From contig JAHLKI010000011.1 of the NCBI GenBank assembly GCA_025602905.1, forward strand, positions 310,001-374,000: a stretch of 64,000 nt of DNA, read 5' to 3'. A model generated the notes under the pieces. The model searched no databases. It was not told where the DNA came from and saw only the letters and a list, made by a program, of their open reading frames with translations. This document shows positions 26,593 through 35,746 of the stretch, in pieces. Position 1 is the first letter of the stretch; every line of letters begins with the position of its first letter. A program made the translations under genes and the position numbers. Source of the stretch: Phlyctochytrium arcticum. Its lineage: Eukaryota > Chytridiomycota > Chytridiomycetes > Chytridiales > Chytridiaceae.

Positions 26593-26681
26593 ATGTCTTA
26601 TCGAAGCGTTGTGTGTCAAAATTTGGGTCTGAATCGTTGAAATCGGGGTGATAATGGGCAGTTGCGCGACTGGCGGACCAG

Positions 26682-26783
26682 CTTAAGTCTAATTGTTAGG
26701 TCTGACTCATTTTTCCTTAAGTCTAATTGATAGGTTTTGCGCAGCAGGCCTTAAGTCTAATTGGTAGGTCTGAGTCAGGTTTC
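26682..26783. repeat. Three tandem 34-base repeats upstream of the transposase
   Basis: CTTAAGTCTAATT begins at 26682, 26716 and 26750, giving an exact 34-base period. The first 21 or so bases of each unit agree except at position 15 (T/A/G), and the remainder diverges. They lie between the CWF19-like start and the transposase start. They could be transposase-binding subterminal repeats of the element or a regulatory array of the CWF19-like promoter. Confidence 0.75.
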
Positions 26784-26958
26784 GGACTTTTCGGACAAAC
26801 AAACAGCTGAACAAACAGTGCCCAAATACAAATAAAAAATAAAAATAAATCAGGCTGTACTGCTATGTACTGAACTGAACACCTTCTCCTTCCTGAGTTC
26901 ATAGCCTATATCTGATTGCATAACCTAGTGTCCAAATCTTGTCCGCGTAACTATAATC
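26784..26958. other. AT-rich leader before the transposase start
   Basis: A purine/A-rich stretch (around 26832-26850) and no open frame. It is probably the untranslated or promoter part of the element. Confidence 0.4.
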
Positions 26959-29900
26959 ATGACTGCCAAACGAGGCCGTCCCAAGGGCTCCAAGAACAAG
27001 TCCAATCATCGCGCAGGAAGACCTTGGACAATCAGAAACCGAGGGGGTAGACGTGCCCAAACTTCCGAGCCTGAAACGAACGCTATTCTTCATGCCAGTG
27101 CTAGTAATCTAAACAATGAAATGCAAGGGGGGAGCATGTCCGTCTCCAAAAGTGCGAATACATCATTATTTCCGATCTTTACAGCGCGTGGGAACGCGGC
27201 TGCTAAGCCTGCTGTACAAGAAGGAGCTGATGATACTAATCAAGGAGCTCATAATAGCAATGGTACAATATTGGAAAAAGACATCATCCAGACTGTCTCA
27301 AGCCAATGCACGGGTTCTCATGTTTCCTTTCCATTCATAGAGCCTGCATCGCCAAGTAGCCCCTCACACAGAGCGCCTACTAGCCCCTCCCGCAGCGCCG
27401 AGCAAGAACCCGCAGCTCAGCCCTTCACGCAGTCGACTGATGAACAACCACAAGACCCAGAACAAATGCAACCGGCTACGGAAAGCTCTGCGGAGACTAT
27501 CAAGCCTGCAGAATTGACTACTGATGTTGTGGGGGAAATGTTGGACGGGGGTGCGCGGACGATTCAGCCGGATATGATAGGTGAGCTCTCAAACTGATGG
27601 ATTGTACCAGGCAGTGCTTAACGCCTTCCCATCCATCTAGTAGATAGCCCTGAAGAGCCGGAGATACAAGAAGAAGAACTGGGGGATGATGAGACTACAG
27701 TGCCAGATAAGCGTGAGAATTGCCACTTGGCTTTTCTCACGTCTGTGAAAAAGAACTTGAATGACGAAATGGAGAAGCTGAACAAAAACGGAGGATCCTA
27801 TCCTGACTTCATCACGCAACGCGATTGTTGGATCCGCCGTCCAGCAGTTCAAAACATCTTCCGGGGCCAGCATCATTTGGACCCTATGGAGCTGGCTTAT
27901 CCAGATGTCTACATACATGTGCCGCACCTGTACGCCAACTTAAGATGTCATTGCGGCCACGAACTGACTACGAAGGGATGGAATGACGACTTTCGGAGAG
28001 TAGTGGATCTAGATCGAACGTGGTACCTGCTTTCGCGACGCTACCGCTGCGACAAGCGCGGGAAAAAGTCTGGATGTGGGAAAAGTTTCGTCGGGCATGC
28101 TCCATTCATTCTTGACCAATTGCCCGAAAGCTCGCGCATGTCCTTTCCAGCCGTCCTCACCCAACGAATGGGTATCTCGTCGCTGTTGATGAATCAGATG
28201 CGGCCCCTTTTCCACCACAGAACAGGGCCGTCGCCTACAGCCAACCTCCTCCGAGAACTCCATACTAAGCAGTACGATATTCGACGGTTGGCCTATTTGG
28301 AAGAAGTTCGTCATCGAGTTACCTACCCGCCGCCCTTTGACGCTCAGACAATCTTCCCCCCTTTCCCGGAGTTTGTTAATGAGTATGAAGAGAAGCTTCC
28401 TCTTTCGAACTACCTGTTAGCTGTCTACAATACGGCGCAAAGGCGGTTCCAGAAACGACGTGATCAACAGATTGCTATGCTCCCAGCGGACATTCTTTCC
28501 AGCGATTTCAGTCACAAACTTCCGAAACGTGTTGCACGCGTTGACGGGTGCCCTGTGTATACGGCCGTCCACTCTTTTGGTAATCAATTTGGAGAGATCC
28601 GCGGGCACACGCTCACATTCACGAAAAGCCTGAGGGAAATAGATCAGCCGATCAAAGGGATGTTGAATTCGTTGAAGCAGTTCGGTCATAAGCAACCACA
28701 ACTCTTATTTGTTGACGACGTGCCGGGTAAAGTTCTTTGTGCTTCTCTTTCTGCCCATCATGCATTTTCTAATCGCTGGATTGATCAATAGGAGAACGAG
28801 GGTATTTCGAAAAGGCCATTCCATCCTTAACTCAAGATGTCAGGGCGACTATTATCGATGAATTTGCCAATCTTCCTGAGTTTTCACGTCCTCCAAACGT
28901 GGAGCAATTTCTGATCACTACCTCGACTGCCTGCGATTTTATGCTCAATGTATGGGTCTTGCGAAACCTGAACGCCGGGGGTGAAGAGACAGGTGAAGAG
29001 ACAGGTGAAGAGACAGGTGAAGAGACAGGTGAAGAGACAGGTGAAGAGACAGGTGAAGAGACAGGTGAAGAGACAGGTGAAGAGACAGGGGACGAGACAG
29101 GTGCAGAAACAGGTGCAGAAACAGGTGCAGAGACGATCGCGGTTGATTCGACTGCGAGTGGTCATATGATCCCCGTACAGGTGTACAGGGTAAAGTCGCC
29201 ACCATACAAATTGCGACCAGTGAAGTTGTCTTGATTGTTCACCTCTCTCGTATCGGAACGATCCCCTCAAGCATGAAGCGATTGATTGCGGAAGCGCGTG
29301 TCATCAAAGTAGGCAAAAATCTCGGTACTGACTTGGCAAAACTGGAAAGGGACTATGGCTTGCCTGTAAACCGTGGAACGTTGGAACTTGGTGCCTCTTG
29401 TAAACGTTTGAATGTAGTTTCGGATGGAAGGGTCGGCCTAGACGTACTTTGCGCAACGGTTCTGCGTCAAAGACTCCCCAAGCCAGATTCCATTCGAATA
29501 AGTGAGGATTGGGACAATGAGCAACTGTCCGAACAGCAACTAACGTACGCCGCGAACGACGCGTATGCCAGTCTAATGATCTATACCAACGTGGTGAATT
29601 TGCCCAACTTAAATGCGCAGCAGCTTCGTCCGGGCCTAGCTGTTGATATTGTGGCCAAGGACAACAAGAAGATGGTCGTCGCAACTGGAATCGTGGGACC
29701 TGCCGATGTCACAAGATTACATGGAGTAAACCTAACCAAGACCCGCCAGGCTGTCGAGATCCATCAAATTTTCGTTCCAGCTGCCTTCATACCCCAAAGT
29801 AAAGGTAAGCATGAGCCGTCTGCAATTAATGTTAGCGCGCGACATTGAAGTACGTCTCGTCCTTTTAGAAATTGCCTATGGTGACCTTGACCTGCCATCA

Positions 29901-32078
29901 CGTATTGTTGTACCGACTACACAACTACGAGTCGCTGCGTCCCGCCCCATTGAGATCGTCCCTCCAACAAACATCCCGGACCCGAGCGCTACCATAACCG
30001 TGAATGCCGACAGCCAGCCGTCTTCTTTCGTTGAAGATAGCCTTGAAGATGCGTCAGCGGAAAATGTTTCGGAGATGACGAAGTTGTCCGACCTACTTAT
30101 GGGGGACGAGCAGTCGGAAACAGATGAGCACCACGATGAAGGCAATCCGTTGTAAGACGCCGTTCTTGACGCAACTATTCTAGAAGCTGCCACCCAGATG
30201 CTGAGCGGGATGGAGACTGCTTCTGAACAATCCACACTCCCAACAAGAGTGCTCATGGATCCCTTCCATTTGATGAAAAGGATAGTCATTCCCAGACGGC
30301 ACGGAATTTGAACGAGATTCGTTCGAGCTTTGAGGGATGCAATGTTTGTGGTTGACGAAGATGACAAGCGTCATATGATAAGAGTTTATCTCGAACCACG
30401 GAATCAAACGTGGGAACAGGTTCTGATCCAAAAACCTGCCTGGGTCTGGAAACGCGTCCGGCGGTACATTCCAAAGCCGGAAGTACTACTCCCACTAGTT
30501 AGGAAGGTTTTCTTGGCCTACGGTCCCATTCTCTGCGAAAAGCTGAAAAAGCCATTGTTCAACATGGAGGCATGGAAGAAGGCGAAGCTTGTCATCCGTG
30601 AAATCTTCCTTGGTCATGTCTCCGACCCCGTTGACGTACCACTATATTACAAAATGAAAATTGACAAGTTTCGTCTGACAAAGTATAGGTGCATCCGAGG
30701 GACGAACCTTTTGGAAGGCGGGGTTCATCAGAAAATGATTGCACGGTTCTCCGCATATCGGGCAAGTGTGCCATTTACGCATAGCCTAATGGCAGAATAC
30801 GTTTGTAGACACAATCAGAATGTAAGTCTCTCATTGGGGGGTCCACCTCTACCAATCTCTTTACCACACTAAACGCGACGCTTTCAGGTGGGAACTTTGA
30901 ACAGATCGGGCAAGCCATGGAAGTGGCACTACGACCTGTGGCTGATTGATTCGATACATTCTCTTTACCTGGAGTTGGAACATGTTCTGAAATCGCCGTT
31001 GCCACCACTTCTTGACAATTGGTGTAATCCAAACTACTACAAGCCAAGTCAAGAAACCTTCCTCATTTGTCCGCTAGGAACAGAGATGGCTGAAGTTCAC
31101 CAGATAGAACCTTTCCGTGAGCCAGAGTCAAACTCTTTCCGTCGATCTGAAGTGGCCCGCCTGCAAAACTCTCGTTTCGCAATTATTCCCATTAGCACTA
31201 GAGAGGAAAAGAGGCGGTTCCTTGAATTCCTCAAGGAACGGGAGTGGGCAGAAATTCTCTCCCGACGTGCGTTGGCTAAAACTGGATTCTCGACCGCTCA
31301 GTGGACGAAAATGAGCCACCAATGGAACCGAGAGGCAAATGGAGTAACAATCTTTTATAAGATCGGTGTGCATTTGGAAGCCCACTTCAAAAACTGGGTG
31401 CAGTACCGGATTGAAGCGGCCACTGCATTGTCCAGCGCGGAGCAGCGGGAAGAAGTGGATCGGCTTTTGCGAGACCCCAACCGAACCATCCGCAACTTAC
31501 CCACCGCAAACGTTTCTGACCTACCGCTCATTAACATTCCCGCAGATCCGACGCGTCTCCCCCTACCAATCCCCGCTCCCCAACTAATGCCCGACCCCGA
31601 ACCAACTCACGATCCCGAACCAACTCCTGATCCCGATCCAACTCCCGACCCCGAACCAACTCCCGACCTTCCCGACACTCAATCAACAGCTCCAACTGCT
31701 ATCACCTCTTCCCAAGCAATCTCCGCTCCACAATCGACGGATAGTCTCCATTTGATGATCGCTCCGCAAATAACGCCCGCTACTCAGACGCCCAGACCTA
31801 TCAATGCTATTCCTCCCATCTTACCGACCAATGCCCCCTTGGATGCGACAATGGACGAGTCATCAAAGCCCCGAGCAAAAAGGCAGAGGAGATTATGTCG
31901 TATCTGCAACGGAATATGTCCAGGTAGTGGCAATCGTGCTTTGTGTACAGGGGTTGGACCGGACACTGTTACTGTGGGTGCTTCGGGGCGATTGACGAAA
32001 TCAAAGATCCGCAACTGTCGTAGCTGCCAGTCCACAACATGTCCTGGGCGGTGGAAAGTGGAAAAGTGTGAAGGATGA
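26959..32078 (+). pseudogene. Degenerate DDE-type transposase with an inserted 3'-5' exonuclease domain
   Basis: About 1,600 residues over five exons (introns about 27589-27640, 28727-28791, 29805-29868, 30823-30887). Domains in order: AT-hook KRGRPKGSKNK; a Cys-rich domain (LRCHCGHELTTKGWNDDFR, CDKRGKKSGCGKSF) like fungal DUF6729; a transposase core with the first Asp in SSDFSHKLPKRV (codon 28504) and the second in LLFVDDVPGERGYF (28714 or 28717). Then a GEET repeat and a 3'-5' exonuclease with VDST (weak exo I), GKNLGTDLAKLERDYG (exo II) and TYAANDAYASLMIY (exo III). Then WVWKRVRRYIPKPE and RGTNLLEGGVH with the probable catalytic Glu (30714), a DPEPTP repeat, and a C-terminal knuckle (CRICNGICPG, CRSCQSTTCPGRW). 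Lesions: a frameshift at about 29160-29215, TAA at 30153 and TGA at 30309, both in frame. The function is inferred from motif order and my memory of related fungal proteins, not from a search. Confidence 0.8.
28980..29135 (+). repeat. 12-base minisatellite encoding GEET repeats
   Basis: Thirteen in-frame units of GGTGAAGAGACA or close variants: nine GEET, one GDET and three GAET. The array lies inside the transposase pseudogene exactly at the join between the transposase core and the exonuclease domain. Unit identity is near perfect over the first nine copies, so expansion is recent. Confidence 0.95.
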
Positions 32079-32208
32079 CGACTCGTGGATAACGGATTTA
32101 TACATTACTATTAGCAACCATCAAGTCGTCATATAAAGACGCATTTTTTCCTTCAAATATCATTTATTACATTATAGATTTCTTGACTTGATACACTCAT
32201 GCATATTT

Positions 32209-32256
32209 ATTGGCGCATTGACGCTCAGATTGACGCTCGCTTGCGCTCGCGCCAAT
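32209..32256. repeat. Inverted repeat with ATTGGCGC arms
   Basis: Arms at 32209-32216 and 32249-32256 are perfect complements. The 32-base interior has repeated GACGCTC words. It is a candidate hairpin near the right end of the transposon. Confidence 0.55.
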
Positions 32257-32272
32257 ATATCCTGTTCGAATT

Positions 32273-32300
32273 AATTAATTCCGCTGACGCGGAATTAATT
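32273..32300. repeat. Perfect 12-base-arm hairpin, AATTAATTCCGC
   Basis: Arms 32273-32284 and 32289-32300 are exact complements around the four-base loop TGAC. It is the strongest hairpin I noticed in the window. It may be a transposon end or a transcript 3' signal. Confidence 0.8.
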
Positions 32301-32330
32301 GTTTCTTGGTCCGGGAGTGAAATATAAGCC

Positions 32331-32501: not shown

Positions 32502-35500
32502 ATGTCTGAAGACTTCGGGTACCTCGAGGTAAGGCTTTCGCTCCACATGCTTTCCTAAATCTAGCTTAACAGTGCGGTTCAGTTTCAAGACACTCAAGGA
32601 TCGCAGTATGATTATGAGGGCTTTGCGGTTCCCACGCAGTCCCAAGGCGACAAGTATAACGTTGACGACCTGTCGCTAGAAAGCTTGACACTCAACTCGC
32701 AACTGAGTCAACTAACGCAACCGGAAGGCTTAAGATCCCGTCCCAGTACTGATCACCGGAGGAGTTCAGTGGATTTTTCTGACCTCGGCTTCGTGGAGGA
32801 TAATCAGTACGATTTGGAGGCCCATGACGATATTCTCGATGAGCAACCTCGAGACTTGCCTACACACGCTTGCAAGTATTGTGGTATTCACAACCCCTGT
32901 ACAGTTGTGGAATGTCTTGGCTGCAGTAAATGGTTCTGCAATGCCCGATTGTCTTCTACTCGTGGCTCCCACATCATTCAACATCTAGTGCGTGCTCGCC
33001 ACCGAGACGTTCGTTTACATCCGGATTCGCCCTTGGGAGATACCATTCTGGAATGTTATAATTGCGGCGCGCGGAACGTTTTCAATCTGGGCTTTATTCC
33101 TGCAAAGTCAGACACTGTTGTCGTTCTCCTCTGCAGGTACTTCATCATAATATTGTACACCAATCATGTTCCTTTCTCATTGCTTTCGTGCTTTGTAGGA
33201 CATGCTCGAACCCTCTTGGTCAGAAAGACATGAGCTGGGATCTTTCACAGTGGCTACCCCTGATTGAGGATCGTAGTTTCCTTTCCTGGTTGGTAAAGAT
33301 TCCGACTGAGCAGGAGCAATTTCGAGCTCGACATATCACCCCTTCTCAGATCGCCGCTCTTGAGGATCGCTGGACAGAAGATGCAGATGCGACTCTGGAT
33401 GACCTGAACAAGCCGGGAATAGATGACGAACCTGAAATGGTCCGGCTTCACTATGATGATGCTTACCAGTACCAGAACATCCTTGGCCCTCTCATCAAGA
33501 TGGAAGCTGATTACGACAAGAAGATGAAAGAATCGCAGACACAGAGCGAGATCGTCATTCGTTGGGATGTAGGGCTCAATCAAAAGCGCCTTGCCTGTTT
33601 CATTTTGCCCAAATTGGAGCAGGGCGATATTCGATTAGCTGTTGGAGACGAGTTGCTACTACGCTATACTGGAGAGTTGATCAAGGGCCCGTGGGAAGGA
33701 GTCGGTCATGTTATCAAGATTCCGAATAACTTGTCGGACGAAGTGGTCCTGGAATTGAAGAAGGATGACAAAACTCCCGTAAAATGCACGCACAATTTTA
33801 CTGTCGATTTTGTGTGGAAAGCCACTTCTTTTGAGCGTATGCAGGCCGCAATGAAAACTTTTGCGGTGGATGAGAATTCAGTCAGCCAGTATATTTACCA
33901 TCGTTTACTTGGCCATGAAGTGGAACCACAAATGCTCAAAACAACGATGCCGAGGAGATTCACTGCGCCGAATTTGCCTGATTTGAACCACTCGCAAGTA
34001 TTTGCTGTGAAAAGCGTTCTTCAGCGACCATTCAGTTTGATCCAAGGGCCCCCGGGAACCGGCAAAACTGTAACATCTGCTACCATTGTCTATCATCTTG
34101 CGCGAATGAATCCAGGCCAGGTCCTTGTCTGTGCCCCTAGTAACGTCGCAGTGGATCAGTTGACTGAAAAGATTCATCAGACCGGCTTAAAGGTCGTACG
34201 CGTGACTGCGAAGAGTAGAGAAGCGCTTGATTCGCCTGTTTCCTTTTTGACCCTGCACGAACAAGTCATCAACAATGATACAGATCCTGAATTACAGAAG
34301 TATATTAAGCTGAAACGCGAGCTCGGAGAACTTAGCTCGAACGATGAGAAGCGCTACAGATCACTCAAGCGTCAAGCGGAACGCGAAATTATCCAGAATG
34401 CCGATGTCGTCTGCTGTACATGCGTGGGCGCGGGGGATCCTCGCTTGCAAAAGTATGAATTTCGAACTGTTCTAATCGACGAAGCGACACAAGCCGCTGA
34501 ACCAGAGTGCCTGATTCCTCTTGTACTGGGCGCGAAGCAAACCGTACTTGTGGGTGATCACAAGCAATTGGGTCCAGTCATTTTGAATAAGAAAGCCGCT
34601 AAAGCTGGATTATCTCAATCTCTTTTCGAAAGACTTGTACTCCTGAACATTCGGCCAATTCGGCTGCAAGTACAGTACCGAATGCACCCGTGTCTGTCAG
34701 AGTTTCCCTCCAACATGTTCTATGAAGGATCGCTTCAAAACGGAGTCACTGTGCAGGAGCGTTTGCGAAAGCATGTAGAGTTCCCGTGGCCGGTGCCGGA
34801 AAACCCTATGTTTTTCCATTGTTCCTACGGTCAGGAGGAATTATCTTCGTCAGGGACGTCGTATCTGAATCGTACCGAAGCTACAAACTGCGAGAAGGTT
34901 GTTACACGCTTCCTCAAGACTGGCGTGAAGCCCTCGCAGATTGGAATTATCACACCATATGAGGGACAACGCTCATATGTTGTCAGCCACATGCAATTTG
35001 CAGGGTCTTTGAAAAAAGATCTGTACAAGGAAATCGAGGTTGCCAGTGTGGACGCCTTCCAAGGTCGTGAGAAAGATTACATTATATTGACCTGTGTGCG
35101 ATCAAACGATCATTCTGGAATCGGATTTTTAAGCGACCCACGCCGACTGAATGTTGCTCTGACGAGAGCGAAGTATGGGATCGTCATTCTCGGAAACCCG
35201 AAAGTATTATCAAAGAATCCCCTCTGGTATCAGCTGTTGATGCAATTCAAAGAGAAGGACTGCCTGGTAGAAGGGGCTTTGAACAATCTCAAAAAATCTA
35301 TGATTCAATTTACTCGACCTCGCCAGAAGCTCAGAGACGACAAGTTTGGTGGTAAATTTCAAGTAGATGCCCAGCAGCATTTTGCGAAACTACCGCGTCC
35401 CAATGATACTCGAGGCACTGCCAGACCGAATAACGCGTATGGGGATTCGCTTGCCGCTGTGGATGCAAGTCGCATTTTTTCGCAAGGTCCCTACGCAATG

Positions 35501-35746
35501 CCTTTGTTATCCGGCCCATTCTCTCAGGATTTGCAAATGTCTCTCTCTCAGCACTCTGCATCAAATGAAAACCGAATGTTCTCGCAAGGCGATTCTAATG
35601 GACTTTATGGATACAATAGCTACAGGCCTTCCTCTAGCTCCTCTTTTTCTCAAAACGATCGACACTCCATCGCCATGAGCCAGGAGTCGTACTTGGAAGA
35701 CTACAAGAGTCAAGTAGACTCATACTTTAGTCAAGACCTTCACTAG
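32502..35746 (+). CDS. upf1: UPF1, RNA helicase of nonsense-mediated decay
   Basis: UPF1 is the ATP-dependent SF1 helicase at the centre of nonsense-mediated mRNA decay. Three exons (32502-32528, 32583-33136, 33199-35746) give 1,042 residues in frame. The N-terminal Cys/His domain reads [20 protein letters not shown], then [10 protein letters not shown], with [11 protein letters not shown] across the second intron. Helicase motifs: Walker [21 protein letters not shown], motif [63 protein letters not shown] and [13 protein letters not shown]. The C-terminus has repeated SQ dipeptides (SLSQHS, MSQESY, YFSQDLH), the usual phosphorylation sites for SMG1/PIKK kinases. The stop is 12 bases from that of the converging Dpy-30 gene. 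Confidence 0.96.

What the first reader, a model, noticed from the sequence alone, without database searches (positions are those of the whole stretch)
26959..32078. Transposase core split by an inserted 3'-5' exonuclease domain
In one spliced reading frame the sequence shows an AT-hook, a Cys-rich domain, a first Asp (SSDFSHKLPK) and a second Asp (LLFVDDVPG). Then comes an RNase-D/WRN-like exonuclease with exo II and exo III motifs, then RGTNLLEGGVH with a Glu where the third DDE residue is expected, then a Cys knuckle. So the exonuclease sits between D2 and E of the RNase H-fold transposase. Helical or zinc insertions are known at this site in other transposases (for example hAT). A second nuclease nested there would imply a coupled cut-and-resect mechanism, or trimming of transposon or flanking ends during excision. 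I recall fungal proteins annotated as DUF6729 plus 3'-5' exonuclease, but not a described mechanism.
Basis: partly seen in the sequence, partly recalled or inferred. Interest (0 to 1): 0.88.

Follow-up and report, generated by a model that had tools for sequence, protein, structure and literature searches.

The report
Fungal transposon with built-in exonuclease
This is a damaged copy of a fungal "jumping gene" whose cutting enzyme carries a second, DNA-trimming enzyme inside it; that layout was reported in 2013 for Dada transposons, but the copies here leave a longer target-site mark and were not found in the small-RNA genes that Dada is known for.

Summary
Window 26657-32330 is one copy of a 5.67-kb DNA transposon with four near-identical copies in its genome, plus older and deleted ones. 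Its single five-exon gene encodes AT-hook, Cys-zinc domain (DUF6729), D1, D2, a complete WRN-like DEDDy 3'-5' exonuclease, a DxxH motif, E and a C-terminal Cys cluster. The window copy is dead (one frameshift, two stops); another copy is open over 1643 aa. Of 44 aligned relatives (Basidiomycota, Mucoromycota), 30 keep D, D and E, and 24 of those keep all five exonuclease residues. A model of one relative places the exonuclease between helix alpha-B and strand beta-5, before DxxH, not at the hAT insertion site. The layout is not new: Kojima & Jurka (2013) described it in Dada transposons of Laccaria and Ectocarpus and proposed that the exonuclease processes cleaved 3' ends. New here, as far as the searched library shows: defined ends, an 8-bp target-site duplication (clear in two copies; Dada 6-7 bp), no RNA gene detected at six insertion sites, and sharp right junctions with 0-20 nt of padding on the left. 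I file it as a Dada-like variant. Cut-and-resect is plausible, not shown.

The parts
26657..32330 (+). whole transposon, 5674 bp
   Evidence: sharp alignment borders against copies on C29, C8 and C44
26657..26680 (+). left end, imperfect terminal inverted repeat (GGC...GGACCA)
   Evidence: 14 of 24 match the right end; 1 of 5000 shuffles reaches that
32307..32330 (+). right end, imperfect terminal inverted repeat (TGGTCC...GCC)
26682..26783 (+). three 34-nt direct repeats next to the left end; possible transposase-binding sites (inference)
   Evidence: one copy lost in C29
26959..27580 (+). exon 1, AT-hook from about 26968
   Evidence: splice sites from sequence and frame, no transcript
27641..28726 (+). 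exon 2: Cys-zinc domain (DUF6729), then transposase core beta-1 to beta-4 with D1 (28504) and D2 (28714)
28792..29804 (+). exon 3: alpha-B, repeat-coded linker, exonuclease and start of the beta-rich domain; frameshifted in this copy
28980..29135 (+). 12-nt (GEET) repeat tract, linker between alpha-B and exonuclease, length differs between copies
29147..29600 (+). DEDDy 3'-5' exonuclease: D 29150, E 29156, D 29330, Y 29546, D 29558 (3' limit approximate)
29869..30821 (+). exon 4: DxxH (30258), helical region, E (30714); two stops in this copy
30888..32078 (+). exon 5: C-terminal region with Cys cluster from about 31896
32273..32300 (.). perfect 12-bp palindrome with 4-nt loop, 30 nt inside the right end; role unknown

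Best explanation
A dead copy of a recently active cut-and-paste DNA transposon of a Dada-like lineage. Its one protein is a DDE transposase: AT-hook and zinc domain for DNA binding, an RNase H core that cuts the element ends and joins them to target DNA with a stagger of about 8 bp, and a WRN-like DEDDy exonuclease tethered inside the core between alpha-B and beta-5. Shown: element ends, copies, duplications, gene anatomy, conservation of both active sites, order of the parts. Inferred: (1) D1, D2 and E cut and join, as in other DDE enzymes; (2) the exonuclease trims the exposed 3' strand at the ends, as Kojima & Jurka proposed for Dada; (3) padded left junctions are events in which trimming or repair was incomplete, while the right end was joined directly.
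For: Four copies with 17-30 substitutions over about 5.5 kb against the window copy; sharp borders and inverted ends; duplications of 8-10 nt in 5 of 6 two-ended copies, two of them directly abutting both ends; one open 1643-aa frame; D1, D2, E and exonuclease residues conserved in 44 relatives; model with beta1-beta2-beta3-alphaA-beta4-alphaB-[exonuclease]-beta5-alphaE order; core and exonuclease distances correlate, Mantel r 0.889, n 31, 0 of 2000 permutations reach it, as expected if they travelled together; same nesting published for Dada.
Against: No catalytic assay. The 3D match of the core was not tested: exonuclease or polymerase matches dominate the fold-search lists; profile comparison with one MULE gave no signal; the second model was weak in the core's first strands. 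Six of 30 proteins with D, D, E lack one or more exonuclease residues, two of them (Boletus) by several substitutions, so the activity may be dispensable. Junction sample is six; the window copy itself shows no duplication.
Confidence: 0.8

Rival explanations
1. The nested exonuclease has no part in end chemistry; it is a tolerated or repurposed domain (for example nucleic-acid binding, RNA processing or counter-defence), and padded left junctions are ordinary end-joining or polymerase-slippage scars.
For: Exonuclease residues replaced in P0048 and P0053 with D, D, E intact; padding looks like partial copies of the neighbouring flank, inverted in C44 and direct in C31 and C29 (by eye); fish Dada papers describe families without mention of an exonuclease (PMC8869645, 0 occurrences).
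Against: 24 of 30 members with D, D, E keep all five exonuclease residues across two fungal phyla.
Confidence: 0.3
2. A new superfamily that is only convergent with Dada: it shares DxxH and the nested exonuclease but differs in duplication length and target.
For: 8-bp duplications in C8 and C27 and no RNA gene found at six sites.
Against: Same order D1-D2-exonuclease-DxxH-E, D1-D2 70 against 68 aa, N-terminal four-Cys and C-terminal Cys regions. Published Laccaria elements bear no target in their names, so their ends may not have been known (inference).
Confidence: 0.12
3. A host gene family (not a transposon) that duplicated.
For: No Pfam transposase domain; source names are 'hypothetical protein' or '3'-5' exonuclease'.
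Against: Sharp copy borders, inverted ends, duplications at unrelated sites, short derivatives that keep the ends (C27 1.8 kb, C31 1.3 kb).
Confidence: 0.02

Closest known systems
Dada transposons with exonuclease: Dada-1_LB and Dada-2_LB (Laccaria bicolor), Dada-1_ES (Ectocarpus), Kojima & Jurka 2013, PMC3706591
   Same: DDE plus DxxH; DEDDy exonuclease between the second D and DxxH; N-terminal Cys and C-terminal Cys/His zinc regions; introns; length within 4.7-11 kb
   Different: Here 8-bp duplications, terminal as well as subterminal inverted repeats, no small-RNA-gene target found. The paper names no target for the Laccaria elements; their sequences could not be compared here
MULE (PF10551), many copies in this genome
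   Same: Motif order D1-D2-C/DxxH-E, EG.H around the Glu; long duplications (recalled)
   Different: D2-CxxH is 21 aa in the MULE read here against 496 aa in the C8 copy; no Pfam MULE match
hAT transposases
   Same: RNase H core with a helical insertion before the Glu; 8-bp duplication (recalled)
   Different: Exonuclease sits before beta-5; no PF05699 match
ISL2EU transposons (PMC4482050, one passage)
   Same: Element codes for a transposase and an exonuclease
   Different: There a YqaJ exonuclease in a separate ORF, here DEDDy and nested
WRN exonuclease (PDB 2e6l, 2fbt)
   Different: 28% identity; WRN has it next to a helicase, here it is inside a transposase

Membership tests
Dada superfamily | DDE triad with a DxxH motif after the second D | tested here: met
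   D1, D2, E as above; DxxH: D in 37 and H in 38 of 44, 4 gaps
Dada superfamily | Exonuclease between second D and DxxH (reported for Laccaria and Ectocarpus members) | tested here: met
Dada superfamily | N-terminal CCCC zinc finger | tested here: met
   Four Cys columns, 28/30, 28/30, 33/33, 33/33, 142-185 aa before D1; spacing CxxC...CxxxxC is the reverse of that given for Dada-U6_DR
Dada superfamily | C-terminal CCHC zinc finger | tested here: inconclusive
   Cys columns 16/18, 18/20, 14/17, 15/18 near the C terminus, no conserved His column among them
Dada superfamily | 6-7 bp target-site duplication | tested here: not met
   8 bp abutting both ends in C8 and C27; C44 9 nt with padding; C29 and C31 also allow a 6-nt reading; window copy none
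Dada superfamily | Insertion in tRNA, snRNA or 5S genes (the 2022 paper says many families) | tested here: not met
   No Rfam or ARAGORN match around six insertion sites; U6 model finds two genes elsewhere in the genome; no positive control for tRNA was run
Dada superfamily | No terminal but subterminal inverted repeats | tested here: inconclusive
   Terminal GGC/GCC plus GGACCA at positions 19-24 of both ends
Dada superfamily | Transposase sequence groups with known Dada proteins | not testable with these tools
MULE | Pfam MULE domain PF10551 | tested here: not met
   No match for window pieces at E <= 10 or for P0003 and P0044 at E <= 1
hAT | PF05699 dimerisation domain; extra domain only between beta-5 and E | tested here: not met
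   No PF05699 match; exonuclease before beta-5
DEDDy exonuclease (RNase D/WRN) | Exo I D-x-E, exo II D, exo III Y-x(3)-D on the WRN-type fold | tested here: met

The most novel reading that the evidence does not exclude
A distinct exonuclease-bearing lineage, widespread in Basidiomycota and Mucoromycota, with 8-bp duplications and general targets, in which transposition is asymmetric: the right end is joined precisely, while the left end comes from a cut in flanking DNA followed by 3'-5' trimming by the nested exonuclease. Copies with 6, 15 and 20 nt of left padding would be incompletely trimmed intermediates: a one-protein cut-and-resect transposase.
Probability: 0.15. Interest if true: 0.75.

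Novelty: new variant of a known kind. Interest (0 to 1): 0.45.

Why it matters
One RNase H-like nuclease nested in another is unusual, and in the literature I could reach its function has a one-sentence proposal. This locus gives defined ends, duplications and a junction pattern for an exonuclease-bearing element, so the end-processing idea can be tested by counting junctions in other genomes. It also ties Pfam DUF6729 (named in no paper of the library) to a transposon family, so many fungal genes now called hypothetical protein or 3'-5' exonuclease are probably transposases.

Tried and rejected
hAT-type insertion: rejected, the exonuclease precedes beta-5. The break at 30.15-30.33 kb as a fifth intron: rejected, C8 and C44 read through it. 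KDZ/Plavaka: considered from memory and from passages of PMC12730594 ('exonuclease' 0 times); not tested by sequence. Small-RNA target: nothing found at six sites. Empty site: the window's 5' flank has no second match and the C29 flank only a 93-bp repeat, so no empty allele was seen. Core profile (44 relatives, exonuclease columns left out) against one MULE: no signal, no better than the shuffles. Fold searches: lists dominated by exonucleases and polymerases, nothing learned about the core. Second model: beta-1 to beta-3 region below pLDDT 50. N/S counts by domain between young and old copies: few changes, the old copies carry stops; uninformative. Junction test: the right-anchored search could build in a sharp right end, so I repeated it unanchored: in 5 of 6 copies the longest shared stretch still starts right at the right end, but one of 30 mismatched pairs reaches 9 nt.

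Biases: each protein search scored only about 8000 candidates, picked by words from the first 500 residues or a chosen region, so relatives without exonuclease may have been missed. In one search five of seven hits were dropped: P0004-P0007 match by GEET-like repeats (sequences seen), P0008 by its 7% coverage and name (sequence not read). I aligned 44 of the 99 other homologues (P0002, P0003, P0009-P0105), leaving out mostly fragments.
Full report
WHAT IS THERE. The window lies in a 31.5-Mb genome of unnamed species (G000, contig C11); that it is fungal is inferred from short introns and fungal relatives. Exon 2 finds four copies at 99-100% protein identity, C11 (the window), C8, C29 and C44, among 28 matches in all. 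Comparing copies gives element borders at 26657 and 32330. Outside indels the window copy differs from C29, C8 and C44 at 30 of 5565, 25 of 5496 and 17 of 5620 sites. With four introns (27581-27640, 28727-28791, 29805-29868, 30822-30887) the C8 copy gives one open protein of 1643 aa. The window copy has a frameshift and two stops; C44 is frameshifted after the E residue; C29 has lost the end of intron 3 and the first bases of exon 4. Splice sites are read from sequence and from the frame of relatives, not from transcripts.

RELATIVES. Three protein searches list 99 homologues after five hits were dropped. Source names, where given, include Mucor, Parasitella, Choanephora, and Cytidiella, Trametes, Ganoderma, Grifola, Boletus, Suillus, Amanita, Gloeophyllum (phyla recalled: Mucoromycota, Basidiomycota). 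In the 44 aligned, D1-D2 is exactly 70 aa in 34; in the 31 with all six landmark columns filled, D2-DxxH is 382-502 aa (median 432) and DxxH-E 104-159 (median 151). Thirty of 44 have D, D and E; 24 of these keep all five exonuclease residues; of the six that do not, P0035 and P0052 have gaps, P0063 and P0069 one replacement, and P0048 and P0053 (Boletus) several. Distances in core and exonuclease correlate (Mantel r 0.889, n 31). A divergent relative in the same genome (C2, L019) has the same order of parts.

ENDS AND DUPLICATIONS. Left end GGCAGTTGCGCGACTGGCGGACCA, right end TGGTCCGGGAGTGAAATATAAGCC: imperfect inverted repeats (12 to 16 of 24 in four end pairs, reached by 0 to 16 of 5000 shuffles), GGACCA at the same distance from both tips (one substitution in C8's right end). 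Two short derivatives (C27 about 1.8 kb, C31 about 1.3 kb) keep related ends. In 5 of 6 two-ended copies the bases after the right end recur in the left flank: C8 AGGAATTT and C27 GAAAAAAA abutting both ends; C31 9 nt, C44 9 nt and C29 10 nt with 6, 15 and 20 nt between repeat and left end; the window copy shows none. Mismatched flank pairs (30) reach at most 6 nt, and 8 nt or more occurs in 0.085% of 20,000 random draws. Searched without anchoring, the longest shared stretch in these five still starts at the right end, though one of 30 mismatched pairs reaches 9 nt. C29 and C31 also allow 6-nt readings (abutting in C29, 2 nt off on the right in C31), so the 8-bp length rests on C8 and C27, with C44 in support. 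A junction on C5 (right-end-like tail, 9 nt, left end) fits a similar spacing. No tRNA or Rfam match was found around the six sites; the U6 model finds two genes elsewhere; there was no tRNA positive control.

WHAT IS KNOWN. Kojima & Jurka 2013 (PMC3706591; parts 1-3 of 4 of the text read; [quoted passage not shown] That is this architecture. Dada-U6_DR has D567, D635, E811: D1-D2 68, D2-E 176. If DxxH-E is about 151, about 25 remain for D2-DxxH, and a MULE of this genome has 21, so the exonuclease and its linkers account for the enlarged interval. The 2022 fish survey (PMC8869645, passages) has 0 occurrences of 'exonuclease'. PMC8955403 (one passage) lists Dada among Ganoderma transposons; PMC8290104 and PMC12477816 only mention or count Dada; PMC3985635 (passages) shows nothing on this nesting in the passages seen. 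DUF6729 and PF20499 occur in no paper of the library. Searches turned up no further account of an exonuclease nested in a DDE transposase; subscription papers and Repbase reports lie outside the library.

MECHANISM. The DDE core most likely cuts both ends and inserts with a stagger of about 8 bp. Strand transfer uses the 3' ends of the element (established for DDE enzymes), so a 3'-5' exonuclease in the same protein acts on the right strand to remove flanking bases left by an imprecise cut. A sharp right end and a padded left end are what incomplete trimming or repair at one end would leave; one-ended events are also proposed for Dada-tL. The sample is small, and end joining without any role of the exonuclease would leave similar scars; the padding resembles copies of the neighbouring flank (by eye). 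Members with a mutated exonuclease but intact D, D, E suggest it may be dispensable in some lineages.

VERDICT. Real, multi-copy, recently active (inferred from near-identity of copies); architecture published; ends, duplication length and lack of a detected RNA-gene target are new for exonuclease-bearing elements as far as the searched library shows. Filed as a Dada-like variant, not as a confirmed Dada member, because duplication length and target were tested and not met and sequences could not be compared.

Noticed in passing
L037 1452-6050 minus (contig C8): The C8 copy is split after its stop codon by a 5-kb insertion with one 1532-aa ORF that reads as a Copia retrotransposon (by eye).
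   Followed up: partly
window 33062-35746: UPF1-like RNA helicase gene directly downstream of the element (UPF1 domains in Pfam).
   Followed up: partly
L009 1838-1930 (contig C29): A 93-bp sequence about 320 bp upstream of the C29 insertion recurs at seven other listed places at 91-92% identity; no tRNA or Rfam match in L009.
   Followed up: partly
contigs C3, C80 and C61 of G000: Some older copies occur twice with identical scores and stops (C3/C80 and C3/C61): allelic contigs or segmental duplications.
   Followed up: no
whole genome G000: At least 151 MULE (PF10551) matches, many with long open frames and identical scores: a large MULE load.
   Followed up: no
L050 around 1462-1524 (contig C5): Right-end-like tail, 9 nt, then a left end: looks like a tandem insertion or end-to-end junction.
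   Followed up: no
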